Assembly: GCF_026210795.1 (NCBI RefSeq) | Contig: NC_089433.1 | Coordinates: 5,295,001-5,359,000 of the forward strand | Origin: Rhizophagus irregularis | Taxonomy: Eukaryota; Glomeromycota; Glomeromycetes; Glomerales; Glomeraceae | Length of the DNA stretch: 64,000 nucleotides | Direction of reading: 5' to 3' | Shown here: in pieces, positions 7,101 to 64,000 of the stretch | Layout: each line of letters opens with the position of its first letter | Numbering within the stretch: position 1 is the first letter of the stretch | Translations under genes and position numbers: made by a program | Notes under the pieces: generated by a model | The model's database searches: none | Seen by the model: only the letters and a program-made list of their open reading frames with translations | What the model was told of the DNA's origin: nothing

Positions 7101-8522
7101 GCATCAAAAAATGATAGAAAGTAATGAAATAGGTTCTAAAAATGAAGTTGAATGTGATGAATGTAAACAACCATATATTGATCACCAGTGGTGCCAACAA
7201 TGTAATACTAAACGTTTTCAACAAGATTTTTCCAAGTGGACAAGTAAAAATAAATTTATTGATAAATTTATTCAAGATGCACAACTAAGTGCTAAAAGTA
7301 GTTATGAGCTTTTAGAATGGATACCTTATAATAACTTGACAAAAATTAACTATTATGATAAAGGAGGATTTAGTGAAATTCATAAAGCTATCTGGTTGGA
7401 TGGACCTGTTTATGGTTGGAATGCTGACAAACAACAATGGAATAGACAAACAGACTATGAGGTCATTCTTAAAACACTTAATAATTCATCAAGTTTAAAT
7501 AGTAAATTTCTAGATGAGGTATAGTATTTTTATGTTTAATAATGATTTTATTTTCTTCGTAAAAATGAAAGTTTTGATAATTTTTTATATTTATATAGTG
7601 GAAATATCATTATAATTGTCAGAAACAATCATTTTCAAAATTCATTCAATTTTTTGGGATTACTCAAGATCCAAATAATTTAAATTATATAATAGTAATG
7701 AGTTATGCAAAAAAAGGAAGTTTAAGAAAATGTTTATCTAATATAATTAAATTTAAGTGGCAAGACAAGTTGCAATTATTGAAAAAAATTATACTAGGAC
7801 TTAAAATAATTCATGAGTCAAATTTAGCTCATGGTGATTTTCATGATGGCAATATATTAATGTCAAATGATTACAATGAGTTATTTATTATTGATTTAGG
7901 ATTGTGTAAACCTGTAAGTGAATTACAAGATTCTGATAATGAAATTTATGGAGTTCTGCCTTATATGGCGCCTGAAATATTAAGAAGATATTCCTATACT
8001 CCAGCAAGTGATATTTATAGTTTTTCAATGATAATGTGGGAATTTACATCAGGTCATCCTCCATTTAATTATGAAGAACATGACCAAAACCTTGTCTTAG
8101 ATATTTGTGAAGGAAAACGTCCTGGAATTATAAAAAACACTCCAAAATGTTATATAGATTTAATGAAAAAATGTTGGGATTCAAATCCTTCCAATAGACC
8201 AACCATAATGATGCTTGAAAATGTTATATCTGAATGGATTAGATGTATGAATGAATATTATAGATTAAATAGTGATGGAAATCATAGATATGAAGTACCT
8301 AATATTTATGATCAATTAAAAAATGATTTGATGGAATTTGTAAAAGCAAACAGAGCTTTAATACAAGAACAAGTAAATACTTCTATCATATATTCTCATC
8401 CACAAGCATATTATGCAAGTCGCAAACTTACTGAAATTTTGAATCAAAAAAGTTTTGAATACATTACTGAAATTTCAGATCAAGAGAAAACTCAATGTTA
8501 TGAATGTATAATTGAAAATTAA
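4117..8522 (+). CDS. Sel1-repeat protein fused to a TKL-type protein kinase
   Basis: Two exons, 4117-7518 and 7599-8522, joined in phase 0 across an 80-bp GT-AG intron, give about 1441 residues. Residues 13-29 hold two CxxC pairs. Next come 27 Sel1 units of 36 residues (consensus start A-M-N-N-L-A-I-C-Y-K-N-G-E-G-T-E-K), helical hairpins that normally act as protein-binding scaffolds. Unit 4 lacks nine residues. A second Cys ribbon (C-D-E-C, C-Q-Q-C) and the family W-T-S segment precede the kinase. Exon 1 carries the glycine loop (GGFSEIH) and the VILK lysine. Exon 2 carries HGDFHDGN, DLG in place of DFG, and an APE motif. The catalytic loop is HGD rather than HRD, so this is a non-RD kinase. 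The repeats are nearly identical at DNA level (108-bp period), suggesting recent unit turnover. Substrate unknown. Confidence 0.9.
4200..7115 (+). repeat. 108-bp in-frame coding tandem repeat (27 Sel1 units)
   Basis: Each 108-bp unit encodes one Sel1 motif. Units differ mainly in the last three or four codons (HEG, YKR, LEI, DKV and similar). Units 2-3 and 6-7 share a distinctive EDGHEG/MNDLA junction, implying a multi-unit duplication. Unit 4 is shortened by 27 bp in frame. Long antisense ORFs across the array result from the repeat composition and are not genes. Confidence 0.9.
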
Positions 8523-18669: not shown

Positions 18670-19751
18670 ATGTCTACCATTCGAAGAGAATTAGTTTATC
18701 AAGCAACCAATAGAGCAAGGTCATTGCTTGATTATAACATTTACAAGGGACTCCATAACCAATATGAATTTATAAAACAAACAATTCTTACTGATAGCTC
18801 TCTTACGGAAGATGAAAAAACTGAAGCAATAAGATTAACTACTAAAGATTATGACCGAAATAAAATTCTTTTTAATGAAGGAATAAGAAGAATTTGTGAA
18901 AATTGCAACAAAGAATGTTTAGCTACATTATATTGCGAATATTGTGTTCAAGATTATTTAAAAGAAAGATTTTCAAATTAGACATCTGGAAATAATGATA
19001 TTGATAAATTAATACAAAATTGTCAATTGGAAGCACTTAGCCCGAATATGATAGTAGAATGGATCCCATATAATAATTTAAAGAATATTAAATACCTAAC
19101 TGAAGGTGGATTCTCTAAAATTTATACAGCAGACTGGATTAATGGACCGTATGAAGAATGGGATTCTAAAAAACAGCAATTAGAAAGAATGAAAGTGCCC
19201 GGAATACAAAATTTAGTAGCTAATACTTAAAGAATTAGAAGATATTGAAGGCGCAAGTCAAAGTTTGTTTGAAGAGGTTTGTGATCTAAACATTTAAAAA
19301 ATTCACACTTAAGAATTTTTTAATTACTTACAAATATAAAAAATATTTTATATAGGCTAAATCACACTTAAATATAAGCAGTAAATACCCAAGAATTGTC
19401 GATTGTGCTGGTTTAACAAAAAATCAATCAAATGGTAATTATATGCTAGTAATCATGAGAATGGATGTAAATTTAAGAGAATATTTATTACAAAATCATA
19501 ATCAATTTAAAACAATAAAAAGATATTATTGGGCGTTTTTTATAAAACTAGTAACGATTTTGTTGATCATTTGTTGATCATTTATTTTAAATTTATTATA
19601 AAATTTTGTCACGAGATTTTCTATGGAAATCATTTCTCAATTTGTTATTAAAACACCTGCTGAATTGCCTCGAAATTGAAAATCATTTCCCTTTTTATAA
19701 AAAAATTTCCTTTTTGGTAAAAAACTCTCAGATTAATCTTATATAACTTTA

Positions 19752-21890: not shown

Positions 21891-24025
21891 CGTTTGATGA
21901 CCCGACCCAAAATTTTCGAGTCAATCTGACAGTATAATGATTATAACTCACTAATAATTACCAAGTTACTCTAGTTACATGGAAAGAAAGAATTAAAATT
22001 GCTTTTTTAATAATTAATGCACTTCAATGGATTCAGGAAGAGAATTCAATTCATAGAGATTTGCATTCTGGAAATATATTATATTCACAACATAATGATT
22101 CTTGGTGTATTAGTGATCTTGGTTTTTGTGGTCATGTAGATAAATCACCAAAAAGTATATATGGAAATCTTCCATATATTGCACCTGAAATTATTTCTGG
22201 AAGAAAATATACTTTTGCATCTGATATTTATAGTATTGCAATGCTTATGTGGGAAATTTCATCTGGACGACCTCCTTTTAATAATCATGAAAATGATTAC
22301 TATCTTGCAATGAATATAGTTAATGGTATAAGACCAAGAATAGTATCAGGAACTCCTTTAGAATATAAAAATTTAATGAAACAATGTTGGGATGCCGATC
22401 CATTAAAAAGGCCCGACATTTATACACTTGTAAACAAAATGAGTGGAATTAATGCATTATTTCAAAATATACCAAATTAATTAGATGCAGACAACGATTT
22501 AGAAACAAATAATTCAGAAACAAATTATTCATCAAGCAGCAGATTATTTAATACAAGTAAAATTCATCAATTTGAAAATTTCCCTGAACCAAGAAATGCA
22601 ACAGAAGGTATTAATATTTATTGCTAAATTTTTTATTACCAGTTATTTTTATTAGTATTTTTTTTTTTAAAAAAAAATCCATTAATAATAGAAGAGCAAG
22701 AAGGTAACATAAAATTAATGGTTTATTTATTTATGGCTGAAGCTTTTTATTAAATAACTTAAAAATTTATTTTAATAGCATTTCATAGTAAATCCTATAA
22801 ATTTAGCATTCCTCAAAATAGTAAGTAAACTTTACTTAATTTTTACATATGATAATACATTTAAATAATTATTTTTTTTTATTTTCAGTCAATGACTTTA
22901 GCAATTCAAGTAATCAAAATTATGATAATACATCTAAATCAAACAGTGTTTCAAAAGGTATAATAATTAGTTATTAAAAATTTATTGACATAACCTTTGT
23001 ATAAAGTACTAACATAATGTTTTAAAATGTATAATAACAACACATTGCCTAAAGTATTTAACAATCTAAAAATAAATTCAAAAAATGGTAAGTAAAATAT
23101 TTAATACATATTGTAAGAATTTTGATAAAATATATTAGTTTCTAATTAAAATTATTATAGATATTTTTAAAGAAGATGCAATAAAACAGAAAATTAAAAG
23201 ACAAGATCGTGATGTTAATGGTACTAATAATTAAAATATAATATAATATTAGTATTTTTTGTAATGTTATTTACTAATATTAACTTTTTTCTTTATTCTA
23301 TTTTAGACATGCAAATTGAAGAATTTGCTTTTGAACAATCTGTATCCCAAACTGATCAAATTACAATAATTGGTAAAAAAGAATACAATTGTTTGTTAAT
23401 TATAATAATCTATATAATTTAATACTTATCAAAAAACAAATTTATAGATAACAACAATGAGGAAAAGGGCAAATCTAAAAGAATTTATTCAGTTATTATG
23501 ATGATATGAAAATTGTATTATTTAAAATAAACTATATTAAAAAACAAACTTTTTGTTTATTTAATAATAAATCCAAAAAGATTAAATTAAATATCAATAA
23601 GGGTAATTAATTATTTTAAATAAAATTTTAATTTATTATAATAATGTGTATAAATTTAAATATACTATATAAAATTATGCTAGCCAATTTTCAATATATA
23701 CAAAGAAATTATATTGCAGATGATGGTAAGGAATTATTATTTATTCCTTTCATTACTGAATTAAACATAATTATATTTATAATATATATAGATGAAAATG
23801 ATATTTCTAATAACCCAAACTTACATTCGGAGGGTCAAGATGAATTTGAAATTCCAGAAGGTAATTTAATAATTTATCAACATTATTTGATTTTATTTCA
23901 ATAATACTACAAAATGTTGACTTTTTTACGATTTATTTATTTCCATTTTTATTAGATGGGTTTGAATAGGGAATATTTTATAAATTTCTGATTTAAATTT
24001 CTATCTTTATTATGATTATTGCCTG

Positions 24026-29462: not shown

Positions 29463-31831
29463 TCATAAATAATTACCTTCCGGAATCTCTAATTCATCTT
29501 GATCTTCTGAATGAAAGTTTGGATTATTAAAAGTTTCATCATCTTCTACGTCTATTATAAATATAAATTATGTCAATTCTAATTTGGTAATAAGAATAAA
29601 TAATAAATTTCTTACCATCATTTACAAAATAATTTCTTTGCATATATTGGAATTCGACTGTAAAATTGTACGTATAATTTTAAAATAAATTTAATTACCA
29701 AATAACCGAAGAAGTTTATTTTAAAATGGTTAAACAATTAATTACCTTTATTACTATTCAATTTGATCTTTTTGGATTTATTATTATCAGTTACTAAATC
29801 TTCTTTCTCGTCTTCTGTTTAAAATAAATAAGAAAATTATTTTTATTTAAAATATATACGTATATAATAATAATTTTAGCATCGTTTATAATTACCTGAA
29901 TAAATTCTCTTAGATTTACCCTTTGTCTCATTTTTATTATCTATAAATTGATTTTTGAAAACAGTAAATATTAATTTATAAAAATTAATTTAAATTATAT
30001 TTATTTTTCTTTATTTGTTTACCAATTATTGTAAAATTATTCTGTTTGACTTGACATTCAGACTGTTCAGATATAATATCGCCAATTTCTGAATAAAATA
30101 AAGAAAATTAACTTGTTAAATTTAATTACAATTTATTAGTATTCATATATAAATTATTACTTACTGTGCGGAATACTTAAACTAAGTTGTAAACTATGAT
30201 AAGCTTTAAATACAAATAATTAACCAATTTTGCATAAATATTTTTATAAATAAGCAATTATAATAATTACCTTGTTGTTCTTCTGTTAATTTAATAAATA
30301 GAAATATAAAAAAAATTAGTTAAATATGATCAAATATAATCTTAAATACACCTAAAATAACGTAATTTTAAAATAATATATTATACCTTCAGTGGCATTT
30401 CTTGGTTCAGGTAAATCTTTAAAAATATGAACTTTACTAAGATTTCTAATTAATGAATTTGTAGAATTAGAGTTTGCATAATTTGTTACAAGTATATTAT
30501 TATTTATTTGCGGTTCAATATCTTCATTTTGATAATATAATCTACATAGTTCTCGAATTTCATAATTAAGATGATTAATATCAGGTCTTTTTGTTGGATC
30601 AGCATTCCAACATTGTTCCATTAGTCTTTTATATTCTAAAGGAGTTCCCGGTATTACTCTTGGTCTCATTCCATTTATAATTTTTAATGCTAAATCACAA
30701 TCATGTTCAAAATTAATAAAAGGTGATTGTCCTGACGAAATTTCCCACATTAACATTGCTATACTGTAAATATCAGACTTAAAAGTAGTTTCTTTTCCAG
30801 AAATAACCTCTGGTGCTATATAAGGAAGATTTCCATATATACTATTTAATGGTTTATCAGCTGGTCCGCAAAATCCAAGATCACTGATGAAGTAATCAAT
30901 TTGTAAAAGTAATATATTTCCTGAATGTAAATCTCTATGAATTGCATTTTCATCTTGAATTTGAGAAAGTGATTCAATTATGAAATAAGCAATCTCAATT
31001 CTTTTTTTCCACGTAATTTTATGATAATTTTGTTGTAAATATTTTCTCAAATCCATATCCATTTGTTTAATTACAAGCATATAATTACCATCTAATGGAT
31101 CTTTTGTTAGGCCATAACATTGTACTATACTTTCCCATTTGTTACTTAGAGTGAAATGAGATTTACACTAATAATTATAAAAATGTATTTTAACTATAAT
31201 TTAATTAATATTGCATTACAAATAAGTTTGTTATATATACCTCATCAAACCAACTTCTATTAGCATTTTCAATATTTTCCAATTTTTTAAGTATTACTTT
31301 TTTTGTGCCATTTCTAAATAATTGTTGTTCTTGATTATCCCATTTAATGTATGGTCCATCAAGCCAATCTGCTGTATAAATTTCTGAGCATCCTCCTTTA
31401 GTTAAATATTGAATATTTTGTAATTTGTCATACTGGATCCATTCTATTATCCTATTTGGTCTCACTGTTTCCATTTGACATGTTTTTAAAAGATCATTTA
31501 TATCATCATTTTTAGACGTCCAATGTGTAAATTTTGCTTTTAGGTAATTTCGAATGCAATATTCACAATATAATTTAGCCAAACATTCTTCTTGACAATT
31601 TTCACAAATTCTTTTTGTCCCTGAATTATTAAGAATATTATACATGTCAGATGATAAATTTATTGATCTTATTGCTTCTAATTTTTCATCTTCTGAAAGT
31701 GATTTATCAGCAAGAACGGTTTGCCTCATAAATTCATCTGCTTTTTCTCGATTATTATGAATATTTATATCTACTAATGCAAATGATTTATTCAATACAA
31801 TATTAACTATTTCATATCGAATATTATCCAT
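29463..31831 (-). CDS. TKL-type protein kinase, nine or more exons
   Basis: Exons in transcript order: 31,831-31,241; 31,167-30,387; 30,282-30,271 (12-nt micro-exon); 30,203-30,165; 30,088-30,023; 29,940-29,896; 29,814-29,746; 29,657-29,616; 29,551-29,477. Exons 2-9 are joined in phase 1. Reading on from the last donor gives a stop at 29,463-29,465 (about 577 residues). Paralogues splice to one more exon encoding D-G-F, but here its acceptor is TTGG, not AG. Exon 1 has a Cys ribbon (C-E-N-C, C-E-Y-C), the W-T-S motif, a G-G-C-S glycine loop and VILK. Exon 2 has HRDLHSGN, DLG and APE. The tail is acidic and Ser/Asn-rich with a K-K-I-K segment, probably disordered. A cytosolic Ser/Thr kinase is expected. 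Partner unknown. Confidence 0.85.
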
Positions 31832-46614: not shown

Positions 46615-49600
46615 ATGAATTTTTTTATCAAGAAGTTATTTAAGTCATTACATATTAAGAAATGTAAAATATGTGAAATATGTGAATATGCATGTCATGC
46701 AATGTATTTTCAGCGAAATTTCAAAAATTGGACTAGTGGTAATAGTGATATTGATAAATTTATTCAAAATAATCAGCTATCAGTTCACAAAGATAATGAA
46801 ATATCACATGTGTTAGAATGGATATCTTATGATAGATTGTATAATATTAAATATATTGCAAAAGATGAATTTGGCGAAATATATCGAGCAAATTGGATTG
46901 ATGGAAATATAAAAAGTTATGTGAGTGTTACATATCAAAATTGTGTTACATATCAAAATTGGGAAAGACATAATAAACATATGGTTGTAGTTCTAAAAAG
47001 TTTAAATAATTTAAAAAATATTACAACTGAAATTGAAAATGAGGTATAATGAATTTATTAATAAAATTTTGAAGTTTTTAATTTTTACTAATATATTTAC
47101 ATTTGTAGATCTATAAACCTTATGGCATAACTCAGAATCCAGCAACAAAAAATTATATCATGGTTTTGAATTATAATAAATGTAAAAAGTGTGATACTAT
47201 ATGTAATGCAATACTCTTTAAACATAAATTCATAGATTGGACTAGTGGTAGTAATGATATTGATAAATTTATTCAAAATATCCAGCTATCAGTTCACAAT
47301 TATTATGAAATGTCACATGTATTAGAATGGATACCTTATGATAGATTGTATGATATTAAATATATTTCAAAAGATGAATTTGGCAAAATATATCAAGCAA
47401 ATTGGATTGATGGATATATAGTTATTAGGGATTATAAAACACAAAATTTGATAAGATATAATCGAAATATGTTTGTAGTTCTAAAAAGATTGAATAATTT
47501 AAAGAATATTACAACTGAAATTAAAAGTGAGGTATAATGAATTTATTAATAAAATTCTGAAGTTTTTAATTTTTACTAATATATTCATGTTTGTAGAATT
47601 ACTATAAACCTTATGGCATAACTCAGGATCCAGAAACAAAAAATTATATCATGGTTTTGAATAATATTAAATGTAAAAAGTGTAATAGAATATGTAATGC
47701 AATACACTTTCAACATAAATTCATAGATTGGACTAGTGGTAATAATGATATTGATAAATTTATTCAAGATACTCAGCTATCAGAACATACTTTTTATTGG
47801 GTAACAAATGCATTGGAATGGATACCTTATGATAAAATGTATAATATTAAATATATTTCAAAAGATGAATTTGGCGAAATATATAGAGCAAATTGGATTG
47901 ATGGATATATATACAATTGGAATAATACAAATAAAAATTGGATGAGAAAATATCAAAATATGTTTGTAGTTCTAAAAAGATTAAATAATTTAAAGAATAT
48001 TACAACTGAAATTGAAAATAAGGTATGATGAATTTATTAATAAAATTTAAAGTTTTTAATTTTTACTAATATATTTATGTTTATAATAGTATTACTGTAA
48101 ACCTTATGGCATAACTCAAGATCCAGAAACAAAAAATTATATCATAGTTTTGAAAAATATTAAATGTAAAAAGTGTAATGGTATATGTAAAGCAATACAC
48201 TTTCAACATAAATTCATAGATTGGACTAGTGGTAATAATGATATTGATAAATTTATTCAAGATACTCAGCTATCAGTTCATAATAATATAAATATTAAAG
48301 TATCACAAGCATTAGAATGGATACCTTATGATAGATTTTATGATATTAAATATATTTCAAAAGATAAATTTGGCGAAATATATAGAGCAAATTGGATTGA
48401 TGGAGAAATAGAGTATTGGGATAATGGAAATTGGAAAAGATATAATCAAAATATGTTTGTAGTTCTAAAAAGTTTAAATAATTTAAAGAATATTACAAAT
48501 GAAATTGAAAATGAGGTATAATGAATTTATTAATAAAATTTTGAAGTTTCTAATTTTTACTAATATATTTACATTTGTAGGTCTATAAACCTTATGGCAT
48601 ATCTCAGGATCCAAAAACAAAAAATTATATTTTGGTTTTGAATTATAAATGTAAAAAGTGTAATAGAATATGTAATGCAATACACTTTCAACATAAATTC
48701 ATAGATTGGACTAGTGGTAATAATGATATTGATAAATTTATTCAAGATACCCAGCTATCAGAACATACTGATTTGGTAAACAATGCATTAGAATGGATAC
48801 CTTATGATAGATTGATTTATATTACAAAAGATGAATTTGGCAAAATATATCAAGCAAATTGGATTGATGGAGAAATAGAGTATTGGGATAATGGAAATTG
48901 GAAAAGAAATAATCTAAATATTTTTGTAGTTTTAAGAAGTTTAAATAATTTAAAGAATATTACAACTGAAATTGAAAATGAGGTATGATGAATTTATTTA
49001 ATAAAATTTGAAGTTTTTAATTTTTACTAATATATTGTACATTTGTAGGTCTATAAACCTTGTGGCATAACTCAAGATCCAGAAACAAAAAATTATATCA
49101 TGGTTTTGAATTATGAATGTAACGAATGTGATGATATATGTAATGCAATACACTTTCAACATAAATTCATAGATTGGACTAGTGGTAATAATGATATTGA
49201 TAAATTTATTCAAGATACCCAGCTATCAGAACATACTGATTTGGTAAACAATGCATTAGAATGGATACCTTATGATAGATTGTATAATATTGTAAAAGAT
49301 GAATTTGGCAAAATATATCAAGCAAATTGGATTGATGGAGAAATAGAGTATTGGGATAATGGAAATTGGAAAAGATATAATCTAAATATTTTTGTAGGTT
49401 TAAGAAGTTTAAATAATTTAAAGAATATTACAATTGAAATTGAAAATGAGGTATGATGAATTTATTTAATAAAATTTGAAGTTTTTAATTTTCACAAATA
49501 TATTTACATTTGTAGGTCAATAAACCTTGTGGCATAACTCAAGATCCAGAAACAAAAAATTATATCATGGTTTTGAATTACTATAAATGTAAAAAATGTA

Positions 49601-51690
49601 ATGGTATATGTAATGCAATACACTTTCAACATAAATTCATAGATTGGACTAGTGGTAATAATGATATTGATAAATTTATTCAAGATACCCAGCTATCAGT
49701 TCACAAAGATATTGAAATATCACATGCATTGGAATGGATACCTTATGATAGATTGTATAATATTGTAAAAGATGAATTTGGCAAAATATATCAAGCAAAT
49801 TGGATTGATGGAGAAATAGAGTATTGGGATAATGGAAATTGGAAAAGATATAATCAACATATGTTTGTAGTTCTAGGAAGTTTAAATAACTTAAAGAATA
49901 TTACAACTGAAATTGAAAATGGGGTATAATAAATTTATTAATAAAATTTTGAAGTTTTTAATTTTACTAATATATTTATATTTGTAGGTCTATAAACCTT
50001 GTGGCATAACTCAGGATCCAGAAACGAAAAATTATATCATGGTTTTTAATAATAATAAATGCAAAAAGTGTAATAGAATATGTATTGCAATACACTTTCA
50101 ACATAAATTCATAGATTGGACTAGTGATAATAATAATATTGATAAATTTATTCAAGATACCCAACTATCAGTTCATAATAAAATTGAAATATCACAAGCA
50201 TTAGAATGGGTACCTCATGATAGATTTTATAATATTAATTATATTGCAAAAGGCGGATTTGGCAAAGTGTATAGAGCAAATTGGATTGATGGAAATCTAA
50301 TTAATTGGGATAATGAAAATCAAAATTGGATGAGATATAATCAAAATATGTTTGTAGCTCTAAAAAGTTTGAATAATTCAAAAAATGTTCCATTAGAATT
50401 TATGAATGAGGTATAATATGATTAATTATTTACTATTATTATACCTAAATTATTAATTTTACTATATTTTTTCTTTTGTATAGATTATATTGCATAATAA
50501 AGGAGGCATAGATAATGATTTTATTGTTAGATTTTATGGAATAACTCAAGATCCAGAGACAAAAAATTATATGATGGTTTTAGATTATGCAGAAGGTGGG
50601 AGTTTACGAAATTATTTAGATAAAGAATATAATAAGCATAATTGGGATAAAAAGATTGTTTATTTACGATATATTATAGATGGACTTAAATGTATTCATG
50701 AAAAGGAATTAGTTCACCGAGATTTGCATATTGGAAATATATTAAAGTTTAAAAATAAAACTGCTATAACTGATATGGGATTATGTAAACCTGCAAATTA
50801 TAATGCATTAGAAAATACAAATAATAATATATATGGTGTTTTGCCTTATATTGCTCCTGAGATTTTAAGAGGACAAAATTATTCTAAAGCTGCTGATATT
50901 TATAGTTATGGTATAATTATGTATGAAGTAATTTCCGGATTACCTCCATATTATCATTTAAGCCATGATAATAATTTAGCAATCAAAATTTGTCAAGGTC
51001 TTAGACCAAGGTTTAGCATTGAAGTACCACAATTAATTGTGCAATTAATTAAAAGATGCTTAGATGCCAATCCATTAAATCGACCAATAGCAAAAGAAAT
51101 TAATAGTATTTTATACATATGGAAATATATTTCAACTAATGAACAAAGCAAAATATTACAAGCACAAATTAATAAAATAAACAAATATTCATTAGATAGC
51201 TGCATAACTCCAATTAACTTAGGAATATCAAATAATACACATTCAGGAGCTATTTATACAAGTAGGTTACTTGATTTTAATAGTCTTCCTGAACCAAAAA
51301 ATTCAGACGATTATTATGAGCAATATGATAATATTATAAGCAAGGAATTTTCAGGTATTATTAATTGTTTTATTATCTTAAATATAAATCAGGTTTAAAT
51401 ATACTAATAAACTTTTATTAAATAGATTCTTTACAAATCGATATATCTCAATTAAATAATACACATTCAGGAGCTATTTATACAAGTAGGTTACTTGATT
51501 TTAATAGTCTTCCTGAACCAAAAAATTCAGACGATTATTATGAGCAATATGATAATATTATAAGCAAGGAATTTTCAGGTATTATTAATTGTTTTATTAT
51601 CTTAAATATAAATCAGGTTTAAATATACTAATAAACTTTTATTAAATAGATTCTTTACAAATCGATATATCTCAATTAAATATTAATTAA
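46615..51690 (+). CDS. Tandem N-lobe cassette kinase, 11 exons
   Basis: Exons 46,615-47,043; 47,109-47,531; 47,597-48,022; 48,090-48,515; 48,581-48,982; 49,049-49,450; 49,516-49,923; 49,988-50,410; 50,484-51,354; 51,426-51,578; 51,650-51,690, about 1467 residues if all are joined. Exons 1-8 each encode a Cys ribbon (C-K-K-C), W-T-S-G-N-N-D-I-D-K-F-I-Q, and a kinase N-lobe. Exons 2-8 open with G-I-T-Q-D-P-E-T-K-N-Y-I-M-V-L, which normally opens the kinase-body exon. All cassette junctions are phase 0. Cassettes 1-7 have a degenerate loop (K-D-E/K-F-G) and V-V/G-L-K/R. Only cassette 8 has GGFGKVY and VALK. Exon 9 supplies HRDLHIGN, DMG and APE. Any cassette could in principle splice to exon 9. 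Expression pattern unknown. Confidence 0.85.
47044..50483 (+). repeat. Tandem exon-intron repeat, period about 467-493 bp
   Basis: Seven internal exon starts are spaced 488, 493, 491, 468, 467 and 472 bp apart. The separating introns are 64-67 bp and nearly identical (GTATAATGAATTTATTAATA start, TTTGTAG end). Differences concentrate in two coding loops. Confidence 0.9.
51231..51678 (+). repeat. Exact 224-bp tandem duplication creating an extra exon
   Basis: 51,231-51,454 is repeated at 51,455-51,678 with no difference I can see. It copies the end of exon 9, the next intron and the start of the last exon. Because the intron is phase 1 on both sides, the copy forms a 153-nt in-frame exon (51,426-51,578) duplicating I-Y-T-S-R-L-L-D-F-N-S-L-P-E-P-K. 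Confidence 0.85.
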
Positions 51691-59204: not shown

Positions 59205-61442
59205 ATGTCTACCATTCGAATGAAACAAGTTAGTCAAGCAATTAATAGAGCATGGGCATCACTTGATTATAATACTCACGGAGGCTTACATGCTACATAT
59301 GAATATATACGACAAACAATTCTTAATGATAGCTCTCTTACAGATGATGAAAAAACTGAAGCAATAAGAGAAAGTAATAAAGATTATGACCGAGATAAGA
59401 TTAGATGTAATATAGGAACAAGAAGAATTTGTGAAAATTGTAATCAAAAATGTTTGGCTACATTATATTGCGAATATTGTGTTCAAAATTATTTAAAAGC
59501 AAGATTTTCAAATTGGACGTCTGGAAGTAATGATATTGACAACTTAATACAAAAATGTCAATTGGAAACTCATGAACCGGCAATGATAGTAGAATGGATC
59601 CCATATAATAATTTACAAAATATTAAACATCTAACTAAAGGGGGATTCTCTGATATTTATACAGCAAATTGGATTGACGGATATTATATTGAATGGGATA
59701 CTAAAAAGCAACAATTAACAAGATTCGGAACTCAGCATGTAGCACTTAAAGAATTAGTAAATGTTGAAGGTGCAAGTCAAATTTGGTTTGAAGAGGTTTG
59801 TAATCTAATGACTTTTATTTAAACTTTTTTTAATTATTATCAATAAATTTAAAATATACTTCCATAGGCCAAATCTCATTTAAATATAAGCAATAAATAT
59901 CCAAGAATTGTCAAGTGTTGTGGTTTAACTCAAAATCCATCAAATGGAAATTATATGCTTGTATTAAATTGGAGGGATGCAAATTTAAGAGAATATTTAC
60001 AACGAAATCATAGTCGACTTACGTGGAAAGAAAGAATTAAAATCGTTTTTTCAATAATTGATGCGCTTCGTTGGATTCATAAAGAGAATTCGATTCATAG
60101 AGATTTGCATTCTGGAAATGTATTATATTCACAATATGCAGATTCTTGGTGTATTAGTGATCTTGGATTTTGTGGTCCTGCAGATAAATCATCAAAAAGT
60201 ATATATGGAAATCTTCCTTACATAGCGCCCGAAGTTATTTCTGGAAGAAAGTATTCTTTTGCATCTGATATTTATAGTATTGGTATACTTATGTGGGAAA
60301 TTTCGTCTGGACAACTTCCTTTTTGTAATTATGAACATGATTATAACCTTGCAATGAACATAGTTAATGGCGTAAGACCAAGAATAGTACCAGGAACTCC
60401 CTTAGAATATGAAAATTTAATTAAACAATGTTGGGATGCTGATTCACTAAAAAGACCTAACATTAATACACTTTTGTATGAAATTAGTGAAATTAATGCA
60501 TCATTTCAAAATGTGTCAAATGAATCACAAGCAAATAATAATTTAAACAAAAGTAACTTAGAAAAAAATTATACTAGTAAAATGTTATTTACAAGTAAAG
60601 TCCATCAATTTGAAAATTTTCCTGAACCAAGGAATGCGACAAAAGGTATAATTACATTATATATTTATTGGATTTTTATCAATGTTATTTTTATTAATAT
60701 TATTTCCTTAATTATACAATATGATAACAGAAGAACAAGAAGGTAACGCCAATTTAATGGGTTTATCTAAAATTGATCTATTAATAAATTGATTTGTTTA
60801 TTATAATAACTTAAAATATTACTTATTTATAACAGCATTTTATAGTAAATCGTATGACTTAAACATTCCTGATAACTGTAAGTATTTTTTAAAATATTTC
60901 GTCAAATTTTAATGTATGTTAATATTTATTAATAATATTTTTTCATTTTTTCCCATTTTTAGTTGATGATTCCAACTCAAATTACGCTAGTACATCTAAA
61001 ACAAGTAGAAAATTAAAAGGTAGTCATTTATTTTATATATTATTTGATTTATTTGATGTATTAATCTAATTTCTTAATTTTAGGATTTAGTAAAAGATTG
61101 TCTAAAATATTTAAACCCCTGAATCTAAATTCAAAAAATGGTAAGTAAATATACAGTATTAATGCATTTTATATTGTTAGTACAAGCGTTTTATTAAATA
61201 TAATTTAAAAAAAAAAATTGATATTCAAAAATGATTAAATGATTATAAAGGGATAGGAAACAATGCAACTACAGGCTGAATGACGTAAATTGATATTGAT
61301 ATTAGGTGAGATATTTTTTTATATTAATATCTTTATATTGATTTCACTTCATAATTAAATTAAAGTTTTAATGAGTAATTATAATTAGTTTGTTTATTAC
61401 TTTACAGATTATATGTCTCATTTTATTTTGGAATTTTTTTAA
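59205..61442 (+). CDS. TKL-type protein kinase, seven exons
   Basis: Exons 59,205-59,795; 59,868-60,645; 60,731-60,742 (12-nt micro-exon); 60,836-60,877; 60,963-61,019; 61,084-61,140; 61,408-61,442 give 523 residues in one frame. The upstream in-frame ORF start at 59,115 was rejected because paralogues begin M-S-T-I-R. Residues 76-92 hold the Cys ribbon, 104-107 the W-T-S-G motif, 146-152 the loop GGFSDIY and K182 the VALK lysine. Exon 2 has HRDLHSGN (274-281), DLG (295-297) and APE (317-319). Features look catalytically competent, apart from Leu in DFG, common to all kinases here. The tail is Ser/Lys-rich. The stop codon lies inside the hairpin repeat. A decayed exon relic sits near 61,260 in the last intron. 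Confidence 0.88.
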
Positions 61443-62121: not shown

Positions 62122-64000
62122 ATGGATTTTTTTATCAAGAAGCTATTTAAGTCATCACATATTAAGAAATGTAAAAAATGTAAATATGCATGTCATGCAA
62201 TGTATTTTCAGCGAAATTTCAAAAATTGGACTAGTGGTAATAATATTATTGATAAATTTATTCAAAATACTCAGCTATCAGAACATACTTATTGGGTAGA
62301 AAATGCATTAGAATGGATACCTTATGATAGATTGTATGATATTAGATATACTGCAAAAGATGAATTTGGAAAAGTGAATAGAGCAAATTGGATTGATGGA
62401 TATCTAACTAATTGGGATAATGAAAATCAAAATTGGACGAGAGTAAACCAAAATATGTTTGTGGTTCTAAAAAGTTTAAATAATTTAAAGAATATTACAA
62501 CTGAAATTGAAAATGAGGTATAATGAATTTATTAATAAAATTTTGAAGTTTTTAATTTTTACTAATATATTTATATTTGTAGGTCTATAATAAACCTTGT
62601 GGTATAACTCAAGATCCAGAAACAAAAAATTATATCATGGTTTTGAATTATAATAAATGTAAAAAGTGTAATAGTATATGTAATGCAATACACTTTCAAC
62701 ATAAATTCATAGATTGGACTAGTGGTAATAATGATATTGATAAATTTATTCAAGATACCCAGCTATCAGAACATACTGATTATATTGTAAAAAATGCATT
62801 AGAATGGATACCTTATGATAGATTGTATGATATTAAATATATTTCAAAAGATGAATTTGGCAAAATATATCAAGCAAATTGGATTGATGGAGAAATAAAG
62901 TATTGGTATAATGGAAATTGGGAAAGATATAATCAAAATATGTTTGTAGTTCTAAAAAGTTTAAATAATTTAAAAAATATTACAATTGAAATTGAAAATG
63001 AGGTATAATAAATTTATTAATAATTTTTGAAGTTTTTAATTTTTTATTAATATATTCATGTTTGTAGAATTACTCTAAACCTTATGGCATAACTCAGGAT
63101 CCAGAAACGAAAAATTATATCATGGTTTTGAATAATATTAAATGTAAAAAGTGTAATAGTATATGTAATGCAATACACTTTCAACATAAATTCATAGATT
63201 GGACTAGTGGTAATAATGATATTGATAAATTTATTCAAGATACTCAGCTATCAGTTCATAATAATATAAATATTATAGTATCACAAGCATTAGAATGGAT
63301 ACCTTATGATAGATTTTATGATATTAAATATATTTCAAAAGATAAATTTGGCGAAATATATAGAGCAAATTGGATTGATGGAGAAATAGAGTATTGGGAT
63401 AATGGAAATTGGAAAAGATATAATCAAAATATGTTTGTAGTTCTAAAAAGTTTAAATAATTTAAAGAATATTACAACTGAAATTGAAAATGAGGTATAAT
63501 GAATTTATTAATAAAATTTTGAAGTTTTTAATTTTTACTAATATATTTATATTTGTAGGTCTATAATAAACCTTGTGGTATAACTCAGGATCCAGAAACA
63601 AAAAATTATATCATGGTTTTGAATTATAATAAATGTAAAAAGTGTAATAGTATATGTGATGCAATACACTTTCAACATAAATTCATAGATTGGACTAGTG
63701 GTAATAATGATATTGATAAATTTATTCAAGATACCCAGTTATCAGAACATACTGATTATACTGATTATAGGATAAAAAAGATAAAAAATGCAATAGAATG
63801 GATACCTTATGATAGATTGTATATTGCAAAAGATGAATTTGGCAAAATATATCAAGCAAATTGGATTGATGGAGAAATAGAGTATTGGGATAATGGAAAT
63901 TGGAAAAGATACAATCAAAATATATTTGTAGTTCTAAAAAGTTTAAATAATTTAAAGAATATTACAACTGAAATTGAAAATGAGGTATAATGAATTTATT
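62122..64000 (+). CDS. Second tandem N-lobe cassette kinase, cut by window end
   Basis: Exons 62,122-62,517; 62,583-63,002; 63,068-63,493; 63,559-63,984, all phase 0; the fourth intron runs off the window. The start M-D-F-F-I-K-K-L-F-K parallels the 46,615 gene (M-N-F-F-I-K-K-L-F-K). Each exon has the C-K-K-C ribbon, W-T-S-G-N-N and a degenerate glycine loop (K-D-E-F-G or K-D-K-F-G). No canonical cassette or kinase body is reached within the window. Cassette 3 is almost identical to cassette 4 of the first array, including the loop H-N-N-I-N-I. Cassette 4 has a lengthened loop (D-Y-T-D-Y-R-I-K-K-I-K) made by a 9-bp duplication. Confidence 0.85.

What the first reader, a model, noticed from the sequence alone, without database searches (positions are those of the whole stretch)
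46615..51690. Interchangeable tandem kinase N-lobe cassettes upstream of one kinase body
Eight consecutive exons each encode a Cys ribbon plus kinase N-lobe. All junctions are phase 0 with 64-67 bp near-identical introns, followed by a single C-lobe exon. Only the last cassette keeps a canonical glycine loop and VALK. The others have K-D-E/K-F-G loops. The arrangement permits either a giant protein with seven decoy-like N-lobes, or cassette choice resembling mutually exclusive splicing. Exon structure is seen directly; both functional models are inference.
Basis: partly seen in the sequence, partly recalled or inferred. Interest (0 to 1): 0.88.

Follow-up and report, generated by a model that had tools for sequence, protein, structure and literature searches.

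The report
Kinase with stacked degenerate half-kinases
A gene of a root-symbiotic (arbuscular mycorrhizal) fungus appears to encode one giant protein in which seven copies of half a kinase, with damaged ATP-binding motifs, sit in front of one complete kinase; sister genes share the plan, which may be an unrecognised type of sensor or regulator.

Summary
The exon array is real and correctly mapped, and it is not a one-off: 19 arrays sampled in the same assembly (very probably Rhizophagus irregularis) hold about 4 to 20 cassettes, and protein models of three Rhizophagus species and Glomus cerebriforme show the same plan. "Interchangeable" is not supported: position decides role. The cassette before the C-lobe has canonical GG loop plus VALK in 16 of 18 arrays; internal ones in 1 of 153. 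Catalytic motifs are constrained in last cassettes and relaxed upstream, while a ribbon-helix module with a probable CCCH zinc site is conserved throughout. Of 169 in-series junction peptides 57 occur exactly in public gene models; of 574 skipping junctions 4 do, none to the C-lobe. Best reading: one protein of about 1,467 residues, seven ATP-incompetent N-lobe modules before one kinase. A recognition or regulatory role is inferred, partly from a hypervariable linker. No transcript data were available.

The parts
46615..47043 (+). Exon 1: start codon, Cys ribbon, WTSG-helix, N-lobe beta1-alphaC of cassette 1 (loop KDEFG, VVLK)
47109..47531 (+). Exon 2: beta4-beta5 of N-lobe 1, then ribbon and N-lobe of cassette 2 (KDEFG, VVLK)
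47597..48022 (+). Exon 3: cassette 3 (KDEFG, VVLK)
48090..48515 (+). Exon 4: cassette 4 (KDKFG, VVLK)
48581..48982 (+). Exon 5: cassette 5 (KDEFG, VVLR)
49049..49450 (+). Exon 6: cassette 6 (KDEFG, VGLR)
49516..49923 (+). Exon 7: cassette 7 (KDEFG, VVLG)
49988..50410 (+). Exon 8: last cassette, canonical KGGFGKVY loop and VALK
47044..49987 (+). Introns 1-7 (47044-47108, 47532-47596, 48023-48089, 48516-48580, 48983-49048, 49451-49515, 49924-49987): phase 0, 64-67 bp, 91-98% identical
50411..50483 (+). Intron 8 into the C-lobe exon, 73 bp, different sequence
50484..51354 (+). Exon 9: alphaC end, beta4-beta5 and kinase C-lobe (HRD at 50715-50723, DMG in place of DFG), start of tail
   Evidence: Pkinase E 4.9e-36
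51426..51578 (+). Exon 10: duplicated tail exon, 51 residues
51650..51690 (+). Exon 11: end of coding sequence with stop codon
51227..51674 (+). Two 224-bp direct copies, 100% identical, that created exon 10

Best explanation
The locus is one gene of a Glomeraceae kinase family. All cassettes are spliced in series into one protein of about 1,467 residues: seven modules, each a zinc ribbon-helix plus an ATP-incompetent kinase N-lobe with a shortened alphaC, followed by one complete, probably active TKL-like kinase and a tail. The array grew by tandem duplication of a symmetric phase-0 exon unit, which keeps the frame whatever the copy number. Proposed working (inference): the pseudo N-lobes form a multivalent arm that binds partners or ligands, through the conserved ribbon-helix face and variable loops, and so regulates or feeds the single kinase. 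Shown by computation: anatomy, position-dependent role split, conservation pattern, series joining in public gene models, N-lobe fold of one module in a relative. Inferred: the transcript here, zinc binding, loss of ATP binding, recognition or regulatory function.
For: Role split: GG loop in 18 of 18 last and 4 of 153 internal cassettes; VAIK Ala 16 of 18 and 2 of 153; both 16 of 18 and 1 of 153. In 240 public proteins both motifs in 169 of 192 last and 15 of 642 upstream units. Glycine loop dN/dS 0.08 in last and 0.65 in internal; WTSG-helix 0.25 and 0.36. Series junctions 57 of 169 in public models, skips 4 of 574, none to the C-lobe. Beta4-beta5 of each N-lobe lies in the next exon. AlphaFold2 of P0123: pLDDT 83.2, pTM 0.79, pseudo unit with the same element order as the last unit. 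CCC plus His/Cys complete in 139 of 153 internal and 18 of 18 last cassettes. 169 of 171 located introns phase 0; 148 of 150 scored genome matches open.
Against: No RNA or peptide data. Gene models may join exons by algorithm alone; only 1 of the window array's 8 junctions was found, and in another array's protein. Catalytic Lys is kept in 138 of 153 internal cassettes, and in the wider protein set Ala of VAIK occurs in 118 of 642 upstream units, so ATP binding by some modules is not excluded. The window array has dN/dS 1.35 overall, compatible with weak constraint. Four cassettes in the fetched regions appear split by a stop or frameshift. The variable linker is not unique: the exon start scored higher in a sliding scan. 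Zinc, ATP and partner binding are untested.
Confidence: 0.6

Rival explanations
1. Cassette choice: alternative splicing joins one cassette at a time to the C-lobe, giving kinases with different N-lobes (mutually exclusive exons).
For: All cassette exons are phase 0 at both ends with similar flanking introns, so any choice keeps the frame.
Against: Catalytic motifs are position-locked to the last cassette; only exon 1 begins with the start of the protein and it is itself a cassette; internal exons carry beta4-beta5 of the previous N-lobe; no skip to the C-lobe among 574 skipping junctions tested in public models.
Confidence: 0.07
2. Relic array: only the last cassette and the C-lobe are a working gene, and upstream cassettes are decaying duplicates.
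For: Catalytic motifs relaxed upstream; window array dN/dS 1.35; four split cassettes in the fetched regions.
Against: 148 of 150 scored genome matches have no stop; 169 of 171 introns phase 0 with splice signals; WTSG-helix dN/dS 0.33, above 1 in 0 of 19 arrays; CCC plus His/Cys kept in 139 of 153 internal cassettes; the plan recurs in several species.
Confidence: 0.12
3. Silent archive: upstream cassettes are donors for gene conversion into the expressed last cassette.
For: Tandem similar copies with variable segments beside one canonical copy.
Against: Last cassettes are not closest to internals of their own array: nearest neighbour in ribbon-helix is same-array internal for 3.7 of 18, in loop-beta3-alphaC 0 of 18 and another array's last for 14 of 18; an archive needs no intact splice sites.
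Confidence: 0.04
4. Assembly artefact.
For: Tandem repeats are error-prone; the 224-bp repeat at 51227-51674 is 100% identical.
Against: Cassette exons differ by 5-20%; such arrays appear in models from other assemblies, strains and species; the neighbouring array matches public protein P0003 at all six junctions.
Confidence: 0.03

Closest known systems
Expanded kinase-like repertoire of Rhizophagus (2,533 members in PMC10234402, passages; PF07714 the most frequent motif of inflated genes in PMC6123716, passages)
   Same: Same genus and kinase domain family; this gene belongs to that expansion.
   Different: The passages seen count kinase domains and do not describe N-lobe-only arrays.
Plant tandem kinase proteins (kinase-pseudokinase, e.g. 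Pm57, PMC11153570, passages)
   Same: Degenerate kinase module beside a kinase; relaxed constraint on the pseudokinase (Ka/Ks 0.77 against 0.14) as here; an integrated-decoy role is proposed there.
   Different: Those repeat whole kinase domains, usually two; here only N-lobes repeat, about 4 to 20 times, each with a zinc ribbon.
Pseudokinase-kinase tandems such as JAK (recalled; JAK dimer 7t6f among the fold matches)
   Same: A catalytically impaired module N-terminal to one kinase.
   Different: The JAK pseudokinase has both lobes; the modules here have no C-lobe.
Mutually exclusive tandem exon clusters of the Dscam type (recalled)
   Same: Tandem, similar, frame-neutral exons.
   Different: Here the copies are split in role by position, and each exon completes the fold begun in the one before.

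Membership tests
Protein kinase (PF07714/PF00069), cassette 8 plus exon 9 | Whole kinase domain by profile | tested here: met
   PF07714 E 2.3e-42, residues 15-280 of the joined domain
Protein kinase (PF07714/PF00069), cassette 8 plus exon 9 | Glycine loop, VAIK Lys, HRD, metal-binding D of DFG | tested here: met
   KGGFGKVY, VALK, HRD present; DMG in place of DFG keeps the Asp
Protein kinase (PF07714/PF00069), cassette 8 plus exon 9 | Phosphotransfer activity | not testable with these tools
   needs assay
Pseudokinase, cassettes 1-7 | Loss of ATP-binding motifs | tested here: met
   KDEFG/KDKFG loops; Ala of VAIK replaced by V or G, Lys replaced in cassettes 5-7
Pseudokinase, cassettes 1-7 | Bilobal kinase fold | tested here: not met
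   No C-lobe between cassettes
Tandem kinase protein | Two or more whole kinase domains in one chain | tested here: not met
   One C-lobe for eight N-lobes
Mutually exclusive exon cluster | Copies equivalent in function | tested here: not met
   Motifs position-locked
Mutually exclusive exon cluster | One copy per transcript | not testable with these tools
   No RNA data; gene models join in series
Zinc ribbon, CxxC..CxxC type | Four Cys ligands | tested here: not met
   Cassettes have CxxCx3C plus a conserved His instead; zinc itself not tested

The most novel reading that the evidence does not exclude
A protein architecture not described in the papers searched here: poly-N-lobe kinases. Half-kinases serve as a tandem repeat module (zinc ribbon-helix plus ATP-dead N-lobe with variable loops) forming a repertoire of recognition arms in front of one kinase output, amplified into a family in Glomeraceae fungi and working like a receptor or immune-type repertoire for self/non-self or partner sensing.
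Probability: 0.35. Interest if true: 0.85.

Novelty: new variant of a known kind. Interest (0 to 1): 0.68.

Why it matters
Rhizophagus irregularis carries thousands of kinase genes (2,533 in PMC10234402) whose purpose is largely unknown. If a subset are poly-N-lobe kinases, the expansion is not just more kinases but a distinct modular class with a positional rule (degenerate modules, then one canonical kinase), a probable zinc-clamped repeat and variable loops that can be tested. It would also show that half a kinase can be re-used as a repeat domain.

Tried and rejected
Diversifying selection over whole exons: introns looked more conserved than exons in the window, but over arrays dS is close to intron divergence (120 close pairs pooled: dS 0.113, intron 0.112, dN 0.085), so only some segments stand out. 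Nei-Gojobori ratios in a sequence of 27% GC are rough; differences between regions are more reliable than values above 1.

(region dN/dS) had an offset error in my script and is discarded; one search repeated it correctly for all arrays but stopped in its second half, and finished it. In one search the rows for beta4-beta5 and for the motif columns contain a missing-data code of 9 and are not used. In 'stops inside: 0' is true by construction (matches were sought in stop-free frames), so I use (148 of 150). The 194 matches include a few halves of broken or cut cassettes.

The first AlphaFold2 model (P0044, 11 sequences, pLDDT 46.7) was too poor to use. Pfam gave no hit above threshold for single cassette exons and weak hits to unrelated families in whole proteins, which I disregard. 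Gene names such as Ypk2p or Tpk1p on public models I take for automatic names.

Literature: searches and 60 of open-licence PMC papers listed no paper that I recognised as describing N-lobe-only kinase arrays; only listings and the passages cited were seen. Kwon et al. 2019 on pseudokinases, cited in PMC10234402, is not held, so an earlier mention there is not excluded. Of the three protein searches only the best 120 of 465, 3,417 and 1,213 hits were seen.
Full report
WHAT IS THERE. The window is C5:5295001-5359000 of a 146.7-Mb, 32-contig assembly. I take it to be Rhizophagus irregularis: the array at the window's right end (L031) matches public protein P0003 of R. irregularis DAOM 181602/197198 at all six junction peptides, and the 120 best listed relatives are Rhizophagus except one Glomus and one Diversispora. 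The gene has eight cassette exons (46615-50410), a C-lobe exon (50484-51354) and two small tail exons ending in a stop at 51690; in series it encodes 1,467 residues. Introns 1-7 are 64-67 bp and 91-98% identical; cassette exons are 80-95% identical in DNA.

Exons 2-8 start with a KPYGITQDPETKNYIMVLN-type segment, a copy of the beta4-beta5 and hinge start that the C-lobe exon carries, followed by the Cys ribbon and the next beta1-alphaC. So exon i+1 finishes N-lobe i, and the exon unit is a shifted N-lobe. N-lobes 1-7 lack about 13 residues (alphaC end and alphaC-beta4 loop) present in the last.

IT IS A FAMILY PLAN. With the window they give 19 arrays (adjoining stretches merged) and 194 cassette matches: 18 first, 158 internal, 18 last. 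One array, in L034 and L035, has about 20 cassettes before its C-lobe. Of 171 introns located, 169 are phase 0 (59-118 bp, median 70); a strict CTAAY branch motif was found in 75 of 171. The regions were chosen by similarity to cassette 8, so they are not a random sample. The DNA pattern for WTSGNxxID has 749 + 919 exact matches in the genome and 0 for the reversed pattern; these include single-unit kinases. Of 150 scored genome matches to cassette 8, 148 have no stop inside; in the fetched regions four cassettes appear split by a stop or frameshift (L032, L045, twice L049).

THE POSITIONAL RULE. Of 189 matches aligned (5 partial ones dropped), the glycine-loop GG is in 18 of 18 last and 4 of 153 internal cassettes; Ala of VAIK in 16 of 18 and 2 of 153; both in 16 of 18 and 1 of 153. 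First cassettes have neither the second Gly nor the Ala (0 of 18 each). The final cassette of L049 has both motifs but counts as internal because the fetched stretch ends before any C-lobe, so the one exception is probably a last cassette. Internal cassettes have mostly N, I, T, V or D in place of that Ala; by established kinase structure (recalled) it lines the adenine pocket. The Lys is kept in 138 of 153. In 240 public proteins (units of proteins without a recognised C-lobe set aside) GG is in 180 of 192 last and 22 of 642 upstream units, both motifs in 169 and 15. Ala alone separates less well there: 177 of 192 against 118 of 642. Diversispora is an exception (GG in 7 of 8 upstream units); P0112 there, for one, is two whole kinases in tandem. 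Fisher tests for the genome set are below 1e-17 but ignore shared ancestry.

CONSTRAINT. Within arrays dN/dS is 0.33 in the WTSG-helix region (above 1 in 0 of 19 arrays), 0.61 in beta4-beta5, 0.64 in beta3-alphaC, 0.89 in the glycine loop, 1.00 in the beta2-beta3 insert (above 1 in 10 of 19) and 1.91 in the linker before beta1 (above 1 in 14 of 19). Against a special place for the linker: in a sliding seven-column scan the exon start scored highest (1.91), then the linker (1.75), and columns 80-84 also exceeded 1.3. Across arrays the glycine loop is 0.08 in last cassettes and 0.65 in one random internal cassette per locus (a single draw), beta3-alphaC 0.28 against 0.66, the WTSG helix 0.25 against 0.36. 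So catalytic constraint is confined to the last cassette and another constraint is shared by all. The window array is an outlier: 1.35 overall against 0.47-0.89 in 15 other stretches, but 0.31 in the WTSG helix, 2.55 in the linker and 4.17 in the insert, from small counts.

A PROBABLE ZINC SITE. Units with CxxCx2-4C have His at QLSxH in 367 of 383 cases and Cys in 8; units with a four-Cys ribbon have His there in 0 of 112; 109 units fitted neither pattern, 57 of them with His. Replacement of His by Cys in 7 proteins (8 units) fits a metal ligand. No protein holds both ribbon types, so part of the correlation is ancestry. In the genome set CCC plus His/Cys is complete in 139 of 153 internal, 18 of 18 last and 15 of 18 first cassettes.

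SERIES OR CHOICE. Of 169 phase-0 in-series junction peptides (16 residues), 57 are exactly present in the 240 public proteins then held; of 574 possible skipping junctions (those identical to a series junction left out), 4 are, all to another cassette and none to the C-lobe. Similar cassettes make such matches ambiguous. For the window array 1 of 8 in-series (in P0004, another array) and 0 of 25 skipping junctions were found. These are gene models: Maeda et al. built theirs with strand-specific RNA-Seq (PMC6123716, passages), but I could not see which junctions are RNA-supported. With the role split and the shared beta4-beta5, I favour series at about 0.85.

EVOLUTION. Units of this array and of P0003 or P0004 match without collinearity: internals resemble internals, last resembles last (84-87%), C-lobe resembles C-lobe (88-89%). 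So last cassette and C-lobe seem to descend together while internals multiply locally. Arrays also occur in a subfamily with the IGKGGF[AS]TVY-type last loop, with the same rule, including Glomus cerebriforme P0110, P0286 and P0293 (6-7 units). Among 55 further Diversispora proteins none has more than two units; among 12 one had three. Single-unit kinases are common and are probably the ancestral form.

HOW IT PROBABLY WORKS. Inference: the array is a multivalent arm of zinc-clamped pseudo N-lobes. The conserved ribbon-helix face serves packing or a common partner, the variable segments specificity; engagement alters the single kinase. I rate the architecture about 0.85 and this function about 0.35.

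NOVELTY. Papers record the kinase expansion (PMC10234402, PMC6123716, PMC8647823; passages only). Searches listed no account of N-lobe-only arrays that I recognised. The nearest idea is the plant tandem kinase protein with a relaxed pseudokinase as possible decoy (PMC11153570, passages), but that repeats whole kinases.

Noticed in passing
window 62161-64000 and L031: A second array begins at 62161 and runs past the window end: six cassettes, then a C-lobe; it matches public protein P0003 at all six junctions.
   Followed up: yes
window 7192-8237 (+), 59472-60479 (+), 30565-31564 (-): N-lobe followed by C-lobe matches of single-unit kinases; those at 7192 and 59472 have four-Cys ribbons and GGF loops.
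   Followed up: partly
window 18982-19176 and 21977-22417 (+): A kinase N-lobe whose WTSG motif reads as stop-TSG, and 2.8 kb on a C-lobe piece: probably a broken copy.
   Followed up: no
window 51227-51674: A 224-bp direct duplication, 100% identical, adds a tail exon of 51 residues with the frame kept: very recent, or an assembly error.
   Followed up: partly
public proteins P0251, P0255, P0257: A different Rhizophagus architecture: three N-lobes and three C-lobes in one chain, i.e. three tandem kinases.
   Followed up: no
G000 C2:4.84-5.86 Mb: About 1 Mb in which the best cassette matches crowd on both strands: a possible cluster of such genes.
   Followed up: partly
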